Below, in pieces: positions 21,519 through 48,500 of a DNA stretch of 64,000 bases. This DNA comes from an uncultured Opitutales bacterium. GTDB lineage: Bacteria; Verrucomicrobiota; Verrucomicrobiia; Opitutales; Intestinicryptomonadaceae. Each line of letters opens with the position of its first letter. Within the stretch, counting starts at the first letter, position 1. The stretch spans positions 1-64,000 of the forward strand of contig CALXNZ010000012.1 of the NCBI GenBank assembly GCA_944389885.1, given 5' to 3'. Below the pieces are notes generated by a model. The model saw nothing but the letters and a program-made list of their open reading frames with translations, did no database searches and was not told where the DNA came from. The translations under genes were made by a program, and so were the position numbers.

Positions 21519-23009
21519 TTATTGAAATTTTCTCCACAGGGACGGCATAAAAAGAACGAGTATTGAATAGAATTCAAGGCGTCCCATAACCATCAGGCAA
21601 CTAAGAAATATTTTCGATGCCCCATTCATGAATCCGTAGTTTTTAACGGGGCCAACTTCTGCCAGCCCGGGTCCGGCATTGCTTGTGCAGCTGACTACCG
21701 CGGATATGCATCCGCTAAAGCTCATGTCGGGTTCAAGCGCCGCCAGTACCCAGAATCCAAATATGCATATTATTGAATAAAGGCATATGTGGGACATAAT
21801 TGTGTCAGCGTCTTCCGTATCCAAAACCTTCCCGTTCAACCTAAGAGGGAGAACCAATCTCGGCCTGAATGACTTTACAATATCGCGCTTCACAAATTTG
21901 AAGGCCACTACTCCCCGCAGGACTTTGAGCCCGCCGGCAGTGGAGCCCGCGCATCCTCCTAATATCATTATGATAAATAGGGCAACATGTGTAAAGGGCA
22001 GCCATTCTTGATAGTTTGAAGTGGCGAACCCGGTAGTAGTCATTATGGATACCGTTTGAAATGCGCTTTTTGTTATTGCATTGCTCCATGTGTCTATAGT
22101 GAACAGATTTTTGTCATGCAGCAGTATAATTGCTATCGCCACCGATACCGAAGCAAGTATTGCTATATATGTTTTGAATTCAGTGTTGCGAAATACACTT
22201 TTGAAATTTCCCCTGAGGAACATTATTATGGTCATAAAGTTCACTCCGCCGAGGGTCATAAAAAATATTACCGTCCAGTCAATCAACGAATTTTTGTAAT
22301 GGGCGATGCTGTCGTTATATACGCTAAAGCCTCCCGTAGATACGGTAGCTAACATATGGCATATGCCGTCGAACCAGCCCATTCCGGTGAGCCTAAAAGC
22401 GGCAAGACATATTAACGATATTATTACATATATGGCGAGTATGCGCATTGTTGCGCTTTGTATGCGTTCGTAATCCGACACGTCTCCGGCGTGCGTTCCG
22501 GATTCTCCGCCTCCCATATATAGGGTTTTTGCTCCGGATCCGAGAAACGACATTATTGCCACAAAGAAGAGTACCACACCCAATCCTCCTATCCATTGTG
22601 ACAGCGCTCTCCAAAAGAGAAGGCTTCGCGGTATGCTTTCAACATCTCCGAAAATTGACGCCCCGGTTGTAGTGATTCCGCTTGCGGATTCAAATATGGC
22701 GTCAGGGAAAGGGCATGCGAGTATGAGAAAATATGGTACAGCCCCCAAGATGGATACGAGAATCCAGCCCACGCCGACTATGCACATGGCCTCCTTCTTC
22801 TGTATATTTGTAGGGGCGTTGCGGCTTGGAAGATAGAATGCCAGAGCGGACATCGCCGACAGCGCTATGGCGCATACCCATGAGGGCATTGCCTCCGCTT
22901 CGGACACTTCAGCCGCATAAATTTGCGACACTCCCGCGCATAGCGAAAACGCCACGGTTGTCGTCCACAACACGAGCGAAAGCATTTTGAATATTATAGG
23001 ATAGTTCAT
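21519..23009 (-). CDS. trkH: Trk-type potassium uptake protein TrkH
   Basis: This 496-residue integral membrane protein has the four-repeat KcsA-like architecture. Selectivity-filter segments are visible: SGITTTGASIF, LATVSTGGFSVY, VSIMTTTGFATSNY and SCTSNAGPGLAEVG. It forms the K+ channel and works with TrkA, whose gene ends 15 bp upstream in the same leftward unit. Confidence 0.95.
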   Translation of the reverse strand: MNYPIIFKMLSLVLWTTTVAFSLCAGVSQIYAAEVSEAEAMPSWVCAIALSAMSALAFYLPSRNAPTNIQKKEAMCIVGVGWILVSILGAVPYFLILACPFPDAIFESASGITTTGASIFGDVESIPRSLLFWRALSQWIGGLGVVLFFVAIMSFLGSGAKTLYMGGGESGTHAGDVSDYERIQSATMRILAIYVIISLICLAAFRLTGMGWFDGICHMLATVSTGGFSVYNDSIAHYKNSLIDWTVIFFMTLGGVNFMTIIMFLRGNFKSVFRNTEFKTYIAILASVSVAIAIILLHDKNLFTIDTWSNAITKSAFQTVSIMTTTGFATSNYQEWLPFTHVALFIIMILGGCAGSTAGGLKVLRGVVAFKFVKRDIVKSFRPRLVLPLRLNGKVLDTEDADTIMSHICLYSIICIFGFWVLAALEPDMSFSGCISAVVSCTSNAGPGLAEVGPVKNYGFMNGASKIFLSCLMVMGRLEFYSILVLFMPSLWRKFQ

Positions 23010-23024
23010 ATTCGCTATCGCACC

Positions 23025-24377
23025 TTACGGCAGAAACATTTGCGCAACTTCCCTGCGCTTGTCTTTCTCAAGTATCACTATTATTCTGTCTCCGGCTTTT
23101 ATTTCGTCATCGGCGTTTGGAACTTTTGCTTTTAATTCGTCGACTATTGCAGCTACTATGCATGCCGGGGGCAGTTTCAGGTCTCTCAGCTTTTTACTCA
23201 GGCATGGCGAGTTCTCGGGTATTTTAAATTCTATAAACTCGACCGTTCCTCCCTTTAATTCCCCTATGGCTATGAAATCCTTGTTTGTGATGTATTTCTT
23301 TATCTCGTTTACCGTCACCTTTCGAGGTGAGACCGCCGCCCGTATGTCGAGAAATCCGCTTATGTTTTGCAGCACTTGCTCATAGTCGGGTTTGTTGATT
23401 ACCAGTTCAACATATTTCACTCCAAGCTTTTTTGCCTGCAAACAGGTCATTACGTTTTCTTCGTCGTCTTTTGTGCAGGATATGAAATAGTCTGCGCTGC
23501 CTATCTGCTCCTCCTCCAAGAGCCGCAGGCTCGTTGCGCTTCCGTTTATTACGGTGACATTCGGGAACGCTTCGGCGATGTCTTTGCATTTTTTCAGGTC
23601 GGGTTCTATTACCCTAATTTTAAATCTGTAATTGCTTAGCCTGCGTATGACGGATATCGCGGTTTCCGTAGCGCCGTTGAGTACCACCCTTATCGTGGAC
23701 GACGAGTCTTCGTTCGTAAATAATTTGCGGTTTGCCAATAACAGTTCGGGAGTCCCTATTACAGTTATCTTATCCCCCGCTTCAAGTACCGTATCGGCAG
23801 TCGGAACAGCAAGTGTTTCGCCCCTCACAAGGTATCCGATTTTAAGGGAAGAGGGCAAGCGTATTTCTTTGAGGGGCTTTCCAAGCGCTTTTGCCGAAGG
23901 GCTCGTGACTATTTCTTGTAGCTCTATTTGGCCGCGGGCAAAGTCCTCCACCGCCATGCGCTCCGGGTTCCTAACGTGCTTGGCGAGCTCTATGGCAGTC
24001 AGCGCTTCCGGATTTATCAAAGTGTCTATATGAAAATATTCCTGGAAGTTTACGCGTTTATTGTCGGAAAATATGAGGTCGTGGACCCTGGCAATGGTAT
24101 ATTTTGCGCCGAGCTTTCGGGCTATAGAACAGGCTACTATATTGAGCTGGTCGTGGGCGGTCATAGCAATGAAGAAGTCGCACGACGACACCCCCGCCTT
24201 TTCAAGGCATCTGGCCGAGGCCCCGTTGCCCCTTATTACGCGGGCGTCCAAGCTGCTTTCGGCTTCGTCGGCTATTGCGTCTTGTTCTTCTATCATTGTC
24301 ACGGCGTGGCCGTCTTCGCTTAGAACTTGGCACAAAAAGAATCCGACATCTCCCGCGCCTGCTATTATTATTTTCAT
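23025..24377 (-). CDS. trkA: Trk system potassium transport regulatory protein TrkA
   Basis: The 450-residue cytoplasmic protein gates TrkH. It has two tandem RCK units, each a Rossmann nucleotide-binding domain (KIIIAGAGDVGFFL at residue 2; a second one beginning near VVLNGATETAISVI) followed by a TrkA_C domain. TrkA_C domains of related systems bind c-di-AMP in some bacteria, which matters because a predicted diadenylate cyclase lies at 43661-45067. It is first gene of the leftward six-gene run. Confidence 0.95.
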   Translation of the reverse strand: MKIIIAGAGDVGFFLCQVLSEDGHAVTMIEEQDAIADEAESSLDARVIRGNGASARCLEKAGVSSCDFFIAMTAHDQLNIVACSIARKLGAKYTIARVHDLIFSDNKRVNFQEYFHIDTLINPEALTAIELAKHVRNPERMAVEDFARGQIELQEIVTSPSAKALGKPLKEIRLPSSLKIGYLVRGETLAVPTADTVLEAGDKITVIGTPELLLANRKLFTNEDSSSTIRVVLNGATETAISVIRRLSNYRFKIRVIEPDLKKCKDIAEAFPNVTVINGSATSLRLLEEEQIGSADYFISCTKDDEENVMTCLQAKKLGVKYVELVINKPDYEQVLQNISGFLDIRAAVSPRKVTVNEIKKYITNKDFIAIGELKGGTVEFIEFKIPENSPCLSKKLRDLKLPPACIVAAIVDELKAKVPNADDEIKAGDRIIVILEKDKRREVAQMFLP

Positions 24378-42610: not shown

Positions 42611-43648
42611 TCAGGATTTCTTTAAACTTTTCTTGGCGGCTATTGACGATGCAAGGGAAGCCAATATGAAAGCCATGCCCAATCCCCCGGTGATTATTTC
42701 CGGAACCTCGCATATCGTTGATATAAACATTATGGCGGCTAAAGAACCTATCGCCCAATAGGCTCCATTAGTGAGGTAAAGAGCCTTGCTAAGCGTCTTC
42801 TTCTCGACGAGTATTACAGTGATAGAGCGCACGAAAAATGCCCCTACGGCAAGGCCTATTGTTATTATCACCACATCTTTAGTAAGCGCAAATGCCCCGA
42901 GCACCCCGTCGAGCGAGAACGACGCATCTATAAGTTCAAGATATATGAAAGCTCCCAGACCAGCATGCTTCAACGCAAATGCGTTTTCCTTCTTTGCCAG
43001 GCTGTCGAGTTTTGCGCTTGCCCCGTGTATTGCAAGGTGCACGAATATCCCTGCCGTTCCTGATATTATGGAGATGATTCTATCGTCGCTATCCAAAAAT
43101 ATTTGTGTGATTAGGAGAAGTACAAACGTTAGGAGAGTTGGTATGAACGGTATCTTTCCGGCGGCCTTCATCTTCAGCTCGATAAAAGGCAGCCAATGTA
43201 CGTTCTTTTTTCTGTCGAACATGAACTCGCAGAAAAGCATCATGAGGAACGCCCCACCGAACGACGATATTCCAACATTTGATTCGGATAAATGGCGGGC
43301 GTATGAATCGGGATCGTGAAGGGCAAGGTCAAACACCGCGCGCATTGAAAGCCCCGAAAATAGAGATACAATAAGAATCGGGAATACAAATCTCATGCCG
43401 AACACGGCTATGGCGATGCCCCATGTCAAAAATCTCCGCCTCCATATTGGGGCCATATGCTCCAACTTTTGCGCGTTTATTACGGCATTGTCAAAAGATA
43501 GGCTTATTTCAAGGACGCTTATTATCAAGGCGGGAATTAGAAAAGAAAATCCGTGTCCGGGAAATACGCTTTCTCCGCGCCAAAACGCCAAAGACAAACC
43601 AACGACAAGTACCGCAATCGACCATTCAAAATATTTAAGTGTGTGCAT
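42611..43648 (-). CDS. DUF475 / TerC-like integral membrane protein
   Basis: The 345-residue protein has about nine hydrophobic segments. The TerC/DUF475 hallmark acidic motifs SLSFDNAVINAQKLEH and DASFSLDGVLGAFALT lie in transmembrane context. Relatives are linked to metal or tellurite homeostasis, including manganese efflux. It is 12 bp downstream of the EIIA/DAC fusion gene, which suggests a shared transcript; the function is not readable. Confidence 0.87.
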   Translation of the reverse strand: MHTLKYFEWSIAVLVVGLSLAFWRGESVFPGHGFSFLIPALIISVLEISLSFDNAVINAQKLEHMAPIWRRRFLTWGIAIAVFGMRFVFPILIVSLFSGLSMRAVFDLALHDPDSYARHLSESNVGISSFGGAFLMMLFCEFMFDRKKNVHWLPFIELKMKAAGKIPFIPTLLTFVLLLITQIFLDSDDRIISIISGTAGIFVHLAIHGASAKLDSLAKKENAFALKHAGLGAFIYLELIDASFSLDGVLGAFALTKDVVIITIGLAVGAFFVRSITVILVEKKTLSKALYLTNGAYWAIGSLAAIMFISTICEVPEIITGGLGMAFILASLASSIAAKKSLKKS

Positions 43649-43660
43649 TTCGGGAAAATT

Positions 43661-45067
43661 TTATGATTTTTTCTTTTCGTTGAGAGGAAGCATTTGGCCT
43701 TTTCTGAATATCGTGATTTGTCCCGTACTTGAAGATACGACAAGCGAAATGCAGTCCGACATCAGCGATATCGCGTATGCGGCTGCGTGGCGGGCGCCAA
43801 GCCCACCCGGCAGCTGCAATTTGAAGTCGGGGGTATGTATCAAGGCCCCGGCGGCTTCGAGTATTCCGCTTCCGTCTATTATAAAGGCCCCGTCTATCAG
43901 AGAATATTCCTTGACGGTCTCGTCCATGAAAGGATTGAGAACGTTTCTGTCCTCGGGATTGTATCCGTAGAAGGGATTTAATATGAGCTGTTTCAGGTGT
44001 GGCTTTAGGTTTTCCACATTCCCTATGACGAATATGCAGCCTACGGGCTTGCCTTCGCGCCCCTCCACGGAAAGCTCAGTGGCTATGTCTATCACGCGCT
44101 CTATGACCTCTGGCTTGACGCCTTCCGGAAGCATGTCGCGCTGTATAAAAAGTTCGGAGAATTCCTTCGCGATATCCAATACTACTATCGTGTCTATTTG
44201 GTTGCTGTCGCGCACGCCGCCTATGCAGCATATTTTATCTCTCGGGCTGAATATGCCGCGCGTCAATCCTATCATTATTGCGCTTCTCAGCTGCGAGAAA
44301 CGCATCTTAGAAAAACTGCGAACATTTATTACGTCCCAACGCGGCAGCTTTATTGACGGATTTTTTTCCGTCACCATGACAACGTTAAAATCCCCGAAAT
44401 ACTGCGACAGTTCTGGCAGGCTTTGAAAGGAATCGGCTTGAAGCAGTATTGTTGAACACTTTGCGACTTTTGCTATCTTAACCGCGCTCCGGGCTATTAG
44501 GGCGTTTATTTTATCTCCCCTCGTAGTCTGCAGGATTGTCGGATTTACAGCCTCGCCTATGCGCTCTAAAGGGGACTTTTTCACTGCTCGGCTCGGCGAA
44601 GTTCCGGCTCCGTCGAGTATAGACATCACTGCGTCCTTGAAATTATGGAGTTCCGCTGCGGCAAGTAATTTAGATATGTTTTTTGCGTCGGAGAACACAC
44701 GCGCAAGCTTTGATAGGACTTGCAAATAGGAATCAACTTCGGAATCGGCCAAGAGCAGGAAAAGTATGCGGGTGTCCTCATAATCTTCCGCCCCGTTGAA
44801 TTTTATGCCGTTGGGACATTTACCGACTGCGAATACATATTTTTGTTTTAGTCCCACAACTCTCGTATGGGGCATGCATATCCCGTTGCCCAAATATGTT
44901 GAAATGGCTTTCTCGCGGTTTACGAGATCCGCTACTACGGTGTTTCTGTCGGCCCCGGAAAGAACCGAGTCCGGAATGGTTTTCAAAAGCTCGCCTACCG
45001 CCTTTGCAAAATCTGTATCGGCGACGTCCGTGATTCTTGACTTTGATAGGAACCTTATGAGCTTCAT
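43661..45067 (-). CDS. fusion: PTS EIIA domain, PK_C-like domain and DisA-type diadenylate cyclase (DAC)
   Basis: The 468-residue soluble protein has three parts. Residues 1-150 match type-2 PTS EIIA, with the phosphorylatable histidine at H67 in NGICMPHTRV. Residues ~180-330 look like the pyruvate-kinase C-terminal-like domain that precedes DAC in archaeal DacZ/CdaZ. Residues ~380-455 are DisA_N-like: IDGAFIIDGSG carries DGA (392-394), and GARHAAAYAIS carries only RH of the usual RHR (426-428, R428A-like). DAC enzymes make c-di-AMP. The missing second Arg may reduce or alter activity. It lies 17 bp after nuoA. Confidence 0.75.
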   Translation of the reverse strand: MKLIRFLSKSRITDVADTDFAKAVGELLKTIPDSVLSGADRNTVVADLVNREKAISTYLGNGICMPHTRVVGLKQKYVFAVGKCPNGIKFNGAEDYEDTRILFLLLADSEVDSYLQVLSKLARVFSDAKNISKLLAAAELHNFKDAVMSILDGAGTSPSRAVKKSPLERIGEAVNPTILQTTRGDKINALIARSAVKIAKVAKCSTILLQADSFQSLPELSQYFGDFNVVMVTEKNPSIKLPRWDVINVRSFSKMRFSQLRSAIMIGLTRGIFSPRDKICCIGGVRDSNQIDTIVVLDIAKEFSELFIQRDMLPEGVKPEVIERVIDIATELSVEGREGKPVGCIFVIGNVENLKPHLKQLILNPFYGYNPEDRNVLNPFMDETVKEYSLIDGAFIIDGSGILEAAGALIHTPDFKLQLPGGLGARHAAAYAISLMSDCISLVVSSSTGQITIFRKGQMLPLNEKKKS

Positions 45068-45084: not shown

Positions 45085-45471
45085 CTAATTTGATTTCGGA
45101 ATATTCCAGTTTAAAACGTCCTTTTTTATTTCGTAGATTATGCCTGCCGCCGCAGCGGCGATGAATACAAAAGCCGGGATAACTATGGCTACGCCGTCGG
45201 CGAGGAGGTCGGAGTACGCCATCGCCAATGGCAGCATAAAGACTATTTCTATATCGAATATCACAAAGAGCATTGCAACCAGATAGAATCTGGCTCCAAA
45301 CCGCGGGTGGGGGGCCCCTTCCGGAACAATGCCGCATTCGTAGGCGGAGTCTTTTATTTTATTTTTTGGAGATCTCTGGCCGAAGATGTGGCTTGCCGCA
45401 ACTATTGCGACGCCGAGCCCGACGGCGACAATTATCTGAACCAATAGGGGAATGTAAGAAGACAATTCCAT
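45085..45471 (-). CDS. nuoA: NADH-quinone oxidoreductase subunit A (solitary)
   Basis: The 128-residue membrane subunit of complex I has three hydrophobic segments and the diagnostic loop YECGIVPEGAPHPRFGARFY, followed by FDIEIVFMLPLA. ATG 45471 is the start that gives a normal N-terminus. No other nuo gene is adjacent, and the next gene downstream is the EIIA/DAC fusion. It is divergent from dnaE. Confidence 0.93.
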   Translation of the reverse strand: MELSSYIPLLVQIIVAVGLGVAIVAASHIFGQRSPKNKIKDSAYECGIVPEGAPHPRFGARFYLVAMLFVIFDIEIVFMLPLAMAYSDLLADGVAIVIPAFVFIAAAAAGIIYEIKKDVLNWNIPKSN

Positions 45472-45558
45472 ATTAGACAGCAGTTTTTCAGTTTTTTGAC
45501 GCTTTGCAACTTTTTTTATGGGTTGACAGGGCATTGCGTCTGTCCGATTTATTGTCGC

Positions 45559-48500
45559 ATGCCCAATTTTGTCCACCTGCATGTACATACGGACCACAGC
45601 TTTCTCGACGGTTGCGCAAAAATAAACACTTTGCTCGCCCGCGTTGGAGAGTTGGAAATGCCCGCCATAGCTATGACCGACCACGGCAATATGTGCGGGG
45701 CCATAGATTTTTACCACGCTGCAAACGCGGTCGGAATAAAGCCTATTATCGGCATAGAGGCGTATTTCGTTTACGACCAGAAAATGTCCGACAAATTTAA
45801 ATGCGATAGGGAAAAATCCGAGGACATAGGCGGCACTGACGACGCCGCAAATTTAAGCCCCGCAAACCACCCCAAGTATCAGATAAACCACAAGACTCTC
45901 TTAGCCAAAAACTATAAGGGATTTCTCAACCTGTCCAAGCTCACAAGCGAGTCCTACGAGCGCGGATTTTACCGCAAACCGCGCATAGACATGGAAACTC
46001 TCGCGGCGCATTCTGAGGGAGTAATAGCCCTCAGTGGCTGTCTTAACGGCGTTGCCTCGCAGTATCTCCTGTATTCGGATTATGACAAGGCTCGCAAGGC
46101 AACGGGAGAATTTTTGGATATATTCGGGCGCGAAAATTATTTTATAGAAATTCAAAATCATTTTCTTCCCGAACAGAAAAAAATAATGCCCGGATTGGTA
46201 AAGTTGGCCCGCGAGTTCGGGATACGCCTCGTCGCCACAAACGATACCCACTATGTGCGCAAGGAAGACGCCCGGGCTCATGAGGCCATGCTCTGCGTCC
46301 AGACAATGACAACTCTTTCCGACCCGGACCATTGGAAATATCCTTGCGACGAATTTTATATCAAGAGCAGGGCGGAAATGGAAATTGCGTTTCCGGATTT
46401 GCCGGAAGCTCTCGACAGCACTCTCGATATTGCCGAAATGGTGGATATAAAAATACCGTTTGGAAATAACCATTATCCCAGGTACGAACTGCCGGTGGAC
46501 GTCGATTTCAAACCCGACGAAGTGGATTTTAACCGCATTTTGGATCTCTATATAAAAAAGAAAAACGAGGTTTTGGCGCAGAACGGCAAACCTGCGGATT
46601 TCAATTTGACTCCAGATGAGCGTCGGGGATTGATGAAGAACGGGCTCTTCCTCTTTGATTTGGCCAAAAAGGGACTGAAGAAACGCTATGGGGTGGATTA
46701 TGAAAATCCCGAAGCCTACGTCCCCAAAAAGGGCGAAGCTCCCGATAGGGCAAAAATGCTTTGCGACAAACTCGATTATGAGTTGTCTATAATTGTCGGC
46801 GCGGGATTTGTGGACTATTTCTTGATAGTGTACGATTTTATAAATTGGGCCCGCAGCCACGGCATTCCCGTGGGGCCGGGCCGCGGCAGCGGAGCAGGCT
46901 GTATGGTGGCGTACCTTATAAAAATAACCGATATTGAACCAATAAGGTTCGGACTCCTGTTCGAGCGTATGCTGTCATTGGAACGCGTATCTCCTCCCGA
47001 CTTTGACGTCGATTTCTGCCAGAGGCGGCGCGACGAAGTCATAGATTATGTGCGGGCAAAATACGGCGAAGACAGGGTCGCAAATATAGTCACTTTTGGC
47101 AAGTTGGGGGCAAAGCAGGTCGTCAGAGACGTCGCCCGCATACTCGACGTCAGTTTTGACCGCTCTAACGAAATCGCCAAAAAGGTCCCAGACGATCTCA
47201 AAATGACTTTGGCAAAGGCCCTTGAAATATCTTCCGAGTTGCGCGAGGAGTACGAAAGGGATCCCGTTGTTAAGGAAATATTCAAAATAGGCTCCGTTCT
47301 CGAGGGCATGATACGCCAGACCGGAAAGCACGCGTGCGGAATAATTATCGGCGATCAGCGGCTCGACAATCTCGTTCCCATGATGATTCAAGAAAGGGCT
47401 CTCACCACCCAGTTTCCCAAAACTCCCGTGGAGGAACTCGGCCTTTTAAAAGCCGATTTCTTGGGCTTGAAAACACTCACCGTCATATCCGACGCCCAAG
47501 ACAATGTGCGCCGCACTCGAGAAATGCCGGGCTTCGACATAGAGGAAGTGTCTCTTGACGATCCGGCCACCTATAAACTTTTAAATTCCGGTGTCACAAT
47601 AGGCGTGTTTCAACTTGAAAGCGAGGGCATGCAGAACCTTTGTCGGCGCATAAGCCTGAGCTCATTCGAGGAAATCATAGCTTTGATAGCCCTATATCGC
47701 CCGGGGCCCATGCAGTTTATAGACCAATTTATCGAGGCTAAGAAAGACCCATCAAAACTTCAAGTTCCGCATCCGCTGCTAAAAGATCTGGTACAGGAGA
47801 CTTACGGTGTGCTCGTCTATCAAGAGCAGGTTATGATGGCCGCCAGAATAATATCCGGATATACTCTCGGTGAAGCTGATATATTGCGCAGGGCAATGGG
47901 TAAAAAGAAACCGGAGGTCATGGCCAAACAGGAGGCTATATTCGTCCGAAAAGCCAAAGAGCACAATAACATAGGAGAAAAAGAGGCTTCGGAAATATTT
48001 GCGGTTTTGAAAAAATTTGCTGAGTACGGATTTAATAAATCGCATTCCGCCGCGTATGCCATGTTGAGTTATCGAACCGCGTATTTAAAGGCCAATCATC
48101 CGGTCGAATTTATGGCTGCTCTTCTTTCCAGCGAATTGGGAAATCTCGACAAAGTCGCAAAGTTCATAGAAGCGGCCGAACAGATAAACATAAAAGTTCT
48201 CGGCCCCGACATAAATATTTCCCGAGAGGGCTTTACTCCCATTATAGACAAATCGTGGAAACCGGATATGAAAGGATTTATATTCTCCAAGTCGGCAGGT
48301 TCCATACGTTTCGGCCTCGCCGCAATAAAGGGGATAGGGGAAGCCGCCGCCGCGGCAATAGTGTCTGAGCGCGACGCAAACGGCGAATTTAAGGACATAT
48401 TCGATTTCTTGGGCAGAGTGGGATCCAAAAAACTAAACCGCCGCGTTGTCGAAAATTTAACCCTCTCCGGCGCTTTCGACAGGTTTGGCATAGACAGGGG

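What the first reader, a model, noticed from the sequence alone, without database searches (positions are those of the whole stretch)
43661..45067. Predicted diadenylate cyclase fused to a PTS EIIA domain with a changed RHR motif
One protein joins EIIA (H67), a PK_C-like domain and a DAC domain that keeps DGA but has RHA instead of RHR. Sugar-uptake phosphorylation could control c-di-AMP synthesis, or the domain could be a degenerate sensor. The neighbouring region contains TrkA/TrkH, whose relatives are c-di-AMP targets.
Basis: partly seen in the sequence, partly recalled or inferred. Interest (0 to 1): 0.7.

Follow-up and report, generated by a model that had tools for sequence, protein, structure and literature searches.

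The report
PTS-EIIA–fused diadenylate cyclase of Opitutales
A single bacterial protein joins the receiving end of a sugar-uptake phosphate relay to an enzyme domain that makes the signal molecule c-di-AMP; it is the only such enzyme and the only such receiver found in this genome, which suggests, but does not prove, that fuel status sets the level of this signal.

Summary
In detail: window 43661-45067, minus strand, encodes a 468-aa EIIA (H67) / pyruvate-kinase-C-like / DAC protein with DGA and RHA. The fusion is old: full length in 59 of 63 Opitutales genomes scanned and, more divergent, in six genomes elsewhere in Verrucomicrobiota. RHA is a family trait (80 of 81 aligned proteins), not decay: DacZ-type relatives carry R, T, A, N, I or L at this position and haloarchaeal DacZ carries H, while R and H stay. 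The DAC domain is the most constrained part (44 invariant columns of 155). In this 96% complete genome it is the only DAC and only EIIA-2 domain found, beside one EI, one HPr and one HPr kinase; no EIIC (PF02378) or EIIA-man was found. Best reading: an active DacZ-kind cyclase controlled by a PTS phosphorelay that here seems to work without sugar transport. Activity and control are inferred. Against strict control: H67 is lost in at least three lineages that keep the DAC, and EI/HPr presence does not track the fusion. TrkA/TrkH lie 20 kb away; the conserved neighbour is nuoA (70 of 80). The main domain-architecture review (Galperin 2023) could not be read, so prior mention is open.

The parts
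43661..45067 (-). EIIA / PK_C-like / DAC fusion protein, 468 aa
   Evidence: relatives
44603..45067 (-). EIIA domain (residues 1-155), PtsN-like fold
   Evidence: Pfam PF00359 E 2.7e-21; VIA Z 18.4 to EIIA-Ntr 4gqx, rmsd 2.4, 148 aligned
44867..44869 (-). His67, predicted phospho-acceptor (PHTR)
   Evidence: kept in 80 of 81 aligned proteins
44138..44521 (-). PK_C-like / DacZ_P sensor domain (residues 183-310)
   Evidence: Pfam PF21755; VIA Z 13.9 to pyruvate kinase C-terminal domain
43673..44137 (-). DAC domain (residues 311-465)
   Evidence: Pfam PF02457 E 2.3e-18; VIA Z 16.4 to CdaA-AMP 8c4n, rmsd 2.6, 131 aligned
43886..43894 (-). DGA motif (392-394)
   Evidence: invariant in 81 sequences
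43784..43792 (-). RHA motif (426-428), position of RHR
   Evidence: R and H invariant, A in 80 of 81
45085..45717 (-). nuoA-like ORF 17 bp upstream (true start probably downstream of the listed GTG); conserved upstream neighbour
   Evidence: Pfam PF00507; NuoA upstream on the same strand in 70 of 80 relatives
42611..43648 (-). DUF475/TerC-family membrane protein 12 bp downstream
   Evidence: near the fusion in 7 relatives besides the window, directly downstream on the same strand in 6 of them

Best explanation
It is a DacZ-kind diadenylate cyclase that makes c-di-AMP from ATP as a dimer or higher oligomer, with two N-terminal sensor modules. The EIIA module is phosphorylated on H67 by PEP through EI and HPr (HPr itself tunable by HPr kinase), so its phosphorylation reports the PEP/pyruvate state; the pyruvate-kinase-C-like module may bind a metabolite. 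Together they set cyclase activity, and c-di-AMP is expected to act on K+ transport (e.g. TrkA RCK_C domains). Shown here: domains, motif conservation, presence of EI/HPr/HPrK, no second DAC or EIIA-2 found. Inferred: enzyme activity, phosphorylation of H67, the sign of the regulation, the downstream targets.
For: Only DAC and only EIIA-2 domain found in a 95.9% complete genome; one HPr with GIHARPA and KSIM sites, one EI over its equivalog-domain cut-off, HPr kinase over its cut-off. DAC most constrained domain: mean pairwise identity 0.73 against 0.49 for EIIA, 44 invariant columns of 155. E52 invariant; H67, R51, T57, R69 nearly so. DAC model superposes on CdaA-AMP and on DisA chains crystallised with c-di-AMP. 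The third RHx residue varies in DacZ-type relatives, including Haladaptatus DacZ (RHH) that passes the DacZ equivalog cut-off; the H. volcanii member of that class makes c-di-AMP (PMC6741144). A DHH-DHHA1 protein of NrnA type that could remove c-di-AMP/pApA is present.
Against: H67 is replaced in L003 (Y), L130/G367 (Y) and L127-L129 (S or C) while the DAC motifs stay, and G367, G149, G176, G305 still have EI and HPr. G102, G299 and G385 have EI and HPr but no match to the fusion, so the relay has other uses. In the window's own genus G410 lacks EI and HPr and G403 lacks EI; whether they keep the fusion could not be tested. No c-di-AMP riboswitch found in the genome. The haloarchaeal DacZ copies with RHH are plasmid-borne and untested themselves; I know of no activity data for any EIIA fusion.
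Confidence: 0.55

Rival explanations
1. The cyclase is active, but the EIIA module works as a docking/interaction domain (as E. coli EIIA-Ntr does with TrkA, from general knowledge) rather than as a phosphorylation switch of the cyclase; phosphorylation, if any, controls binding to a transporter or another partner.
For: EIIA fold closest to PtsN; H67 lost in several lineages that keep the whole fusion; TrkA present in the genome.
Against: H67 and the surrounding R51/E52/T57/R69 are kept in nearly all of 81 aligned proteins, and EI, HPr and HPrK are present.
Confidence: 0.22
2. Catalytically dead DAC used as an ATP or c-di-AMP sensor.
For: RHR changed to RHA; mutation of RHR to AAA abolishes activity in M. 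tuberculosis DacA and B. thuringiensis CdaS (PMC3328451, PMC4568413). The position of CdaA's SEE is SSS here.
Against: Those mutants lost R and H as well; here both are invariant. The third residue is not conserved among DacZ-type enzymes. No other DAC was found in the genome, so there would be no c-di-AMP maker to feed a sensor. [quoted passage not shown]
Confidence: 0.08
3. Active cyclase governed mainly by the pyruvate-kinase-C-like domain (a metabolite), the EIIA part being vestigial or of secondary importance.
For: PK_C-like fold confirmed; DacZ relatives without EIIA exist (L123, L124, L126); EIIA domain decays in some lineages.
Against: EIIA kept in 59 of 63 Opitutales genomes, with its histidine in nearly all proteins aligned.
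Confidence: 0.12

Closest known systems
DacZ / CdaZ-type diadenylate cyclases of archaea (H. volcanii DacZ, M. jannaschii CdaZ)
   Same: PK_C-like domain followed by a C-terminal DAC domain; best NCBIfam hit is NF041371 DacZ (99.5 bits); DGA kept; a haloarchaeal example with RHH shows the same loose third position. Braun et al. already reported bacterial members of this kind (PMC6741144).
   Different: Far below the DacZ equivalog cut-off (430 bits); N-terminal EIIA domain added; RHA motif; Pfam N-terminal model is DacZ_P, not DACZ_N.
CdaA (DacA), DisA, CdaM diadenylate cyclases
   Same: DAC fold (VIA Z 14-17), DGA and RH kept.
   Different: Soluble EIIA and PK_C-like modules in place of the membrane helices of CdaA/CdaM or the C-terminal domains of DisA; RHA instead of RHR.
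PtsN (EIIA-Ntr) and fructose/mannitol EIIA
   Same: EIIA fold and phospho-acceptor histidine in PH-R context.
   Different: Joined to a cyclase; the second histidine of PtsN-type domains aligns with an invariant tyrosine (Y114) here.
Transport-free ('incomplete') PTS with EI, HPr, HPr kinase and a regulatory EIIA (general knowledge)
   Same: EI, HPr, HPrK present, no EIIC of PF02378 found.
   Different: The only EIIA found is part of a diadenylate cyclase.

Membership tests
DAC domain (PF02457) | Score above Pfam cut-off | tested here: met
   66.4 bits against 27
DAC domain (PF02457) | DGA motif | tested here: met
   residues 392-394, invariant in 81
DAC domain (PF02457) | RHR motif in full | tested here: not met
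   RHA; but the third position is R, A, T, N, I, L or H among DacZ-type relatives, so it does not define this kind
Diadenylate cyclase (function) | c-di-AMP made from ATP | not testable with these tools
   needs a biochemical assay
DacZ equivalog (NF041371) | Score above the equivalog cut-off of 430 bits | tested here: not met
   99.5 bits
DacZ/CdaZ kind in the broad sense | PK_C-like domain directly before the DAC domain | tested here: met
   PF21755 above cut-off; pyruvate kinase C-terminal fold Z 13.9
PTS EIIA-2 (PF00359) | Score above cut-off and phospho-acceptor histidine | tested here: met
   76.5 bits against 27; H67
PTS EIIA-2 (PF00359) | Phosphorylated by HPr-His-P | not testable with these tools
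   EI and HPr are encoded in the genome
PtsN equivalog (TIGR01419) | Score above 138.7 bits | tested here: not met
   52.1 bits

The most novel reading that the evidence does not exclude
In Opitutales the PTS has been turned from sugar import to second-messenger control: a PEP-EI-HPr phosphorelay whose only EIIA in the cell is the regulatory domain of the only diadenylate cyclase, so that glycolytic PEP/pyruvate status directly sets c-di-AMP and hence K+/osmotic balance.
Probability: 0.4. Interest if true: 0.78.

Novelty: new variant of a known kind. Interest (0 to 1): 0.6.

Why it matters
What controls diadenylate cyclases is poorly understood for most classes. A cyclase with a built-in PTS phospho-acceptor gives a concrete, testable input: EI, HPr and the fusion can be purified and the c-di-AMP rate measured with and without PEP. 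It would link carbon flux to c-di-AMP, and so to K+ and turgor, in a whole bacterial order, including cultured genera such as Coraliomargarita, Cerasicoccus and Pelagicoccus. It also suggests that the 'RHR' rule for active DAC domains needs restating as R-H-x for DacZ-type enzymes.

Tried and rejected
Degenerate-motif reading of RHA: rejected as the main reading after aligning 81 proteins and DacZ-type outgroups. TrkA/TrkH linkage: not among the recurrent neighbours in relatives, 19-22 kb apart in the window. c-di-AMP riboswitch RF00379: none found. Attempt to tie loss of H67 to loss of EI/HPr: not supported, since G149, G176, G305 and G367 lost H67 but keep EI and HPr. PDB sequence search with the middle domain gave nothing useful; the fold search did. 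Galperin 2023 'All DACs in a row', He et al. 2020 and Rosenberg et al. 2015 are not held; literature searches turned up no held paper that describes an EIIA-DAC fusion. Tree of DacZ parts: the Opitutales fusions form one supported group; whether the fusions of other classes share the same fusion event is unresolved.

Full report
OBSERVATION. Pfam finds PTS_EIIA_2 (39-141, E 2.7e-21), the DacZ_P 'probable sensor domain' (193-303, 4.2e-7) and DAC (333-458, 2.3e-18); the classical PK_C model is only a sub-threshold hit (0.017). The AlphaFold2 model from 46 aligned sequences has mean pLDDT 87.5. Its EIIA part matches EIIA-Ntr (Z 18.4, rmsd 2.4, 148 aligned) and its DAC part CdaA-AMP (Z 16.4, rmsd 2.6, 131 aligned) and DisA crystallised with c-di-AMP (Z 15.7, rmsd 2.6, 130 aligned). 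Folded alone, the middle domain (pLDDT 87.2) matches the C-terminal domain of pyruvate kinases: all 50 listed matches are pyruvate kinases (best Z 13.9, rmsd 2.8, 118 aligned). So the 'PK_C-like' label is right at the level of fold.

DISTRIBUTION. One scan of species genomes found 243 relatives; the best 80 cover the query essentially end to end, and all but one of their record titles name Verrucomicrobiota, Opitutales or related groups (the exception, L024, is titled Pseudomonadales). Among 388 Verrucomicrobiota genomes, my count from the table is 59 of 63 of the window's order with a full-length match, none in other orders of the class at a score that would indicate this kind of DAC, and six more divergent full-length fusions in other classes (440-472 aa open frames, 301-338 bits). 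EIIA-less DacZ proteins exist in the phylum (L123, L124, L126). In a tree of the DacZ parts the Opitutales fusions form one supported group; the deeper order is unresolved.

THE RHA MOTIF. In 81 aligned proteins (relatives 44-69% identical to the window) D392, G393, A394, R426 and H427 are invariant and position 428 is Ala in 80 and Gly in 1. In distant fusions and EIIA-less relatives the same position is T, R, A, N, I or L, and in two Haladaptatus DacZ proteins H; one EIIA-less relative (L126) has DGG for DGA. The two Haladaptatus proteins pass the DacZ equivalog cut-off, and the class representative of H. volcanii makes c-di-AMP with Mn2+ (PMC6741144). Published loss-of-function mutants changed all three RHR residues to alanine (PMC3328451, PMC4568413), so they do not show that the third arginine is needed. 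The DAC domain is the most constrained part of the protein. I therefore take the domain to be active; this is inference, not proof.

THE RELAY. In the window's genome (2.2 Mb, 95.9% complete) searches found one DAC and one EIIA-2 domain, both in this protein, one HPr with its His and Ser sites visible (GIHARPA, NGKSIMSL), one EI of 591 aa beside a second, 928-aa PEP-utilising frame that is probably PPDK, and one HPr kinase. No EIIA-man and no PF02378 permease were found. Absence calls carry a caveat: the HPr kinase search did not ring in the B. subtilis control, which is known to have the gene, so such a search can miss members; other EIIA and EIIC families were not searched. H67 sits in the PH-R context and R51, E52, T57 and R69 are kept or nearly so; the second histidine of PtsN-type domains aligns with an invariant tyrosine, Y114.

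COUNTER-EVIDENCE. H67 is Tyr in L003 and in L130 (G367), and Ser or Cys in L127-L129 (G149, G176, G305), with the DAC motifs intact; the four named G genomes keep EI and HPr, and G149, G176 and G367 each show a second match to the fusion profile beside the fusion, perhaps another EIIA. G102, G299 and G385 have EI and HPr and no fusion. EI and HPr thus have other partners in the order, and phospho-control is not universal. In the window's own genus G410 lacks both and G403 lacks EI; I had no searches left to see whether the fusion is there.

SURROUNDINGS. NuoA lies upstream on the same strand in 70 of 80 relatives, within 180 bp in all but one of them, and 17 bp upstream in the window; DUF475/TerC follows 12 bp downstream in the window and lies near the fusion in seven relatives, directly downstream on the same strand in six of them. 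TrkH and TrkA are at 21519-24377, with no sign of conserved linkage. TrkA proteins bind c-di-AMP in other bacteria (S. mitis TrkA, PMC12453120; M. bovis TrkA, PMC13022847), so TrkA is a reasonable but untested target.

VERDICT. Best explanation: PTS-controlled DacZ-kind cyclase (0.55). Novelty: new variant of a known kind, with the reservation that the 2023 survey of DAC architectures could not be read and may list it.

Noticed in passing
window 45085-45717 and 70 of 80 relatives: nuoA lies upstream of the fusion gene on the same strand across the order; none of the recurrent gene clusters next to the fusion was recognised as another nuo gene. A respiratory subunit paired with a c-di-AMP gene is unexplained.
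   Followed up: partly
L118:3-5309: A distant fusion sits near an amino-acid permease with a C-terminal EIIA and a zinc-ribbon protein with EIIA: an EIIA-rich locus.
   Followed up: partly
L127, L128, L129: In one family of the order the EIIA domain has lost its histidine (and in L127 falls below the Pfam cut-off) while the DAC domain is intact.
   Followed up: partly
L126:4058-4957: G173 carries a second, EIIA-less DacZ with DGG instead of DGA; its DAC domain also weakly matches NCBIfam NF053872, an anti-phage protein (2.4e-6).
   Followed up: no
G403, G410 (same genus as the window): G410, a single-contig genome, shows neither HPr nor EI, and G403 no EI.
   Followed up: no
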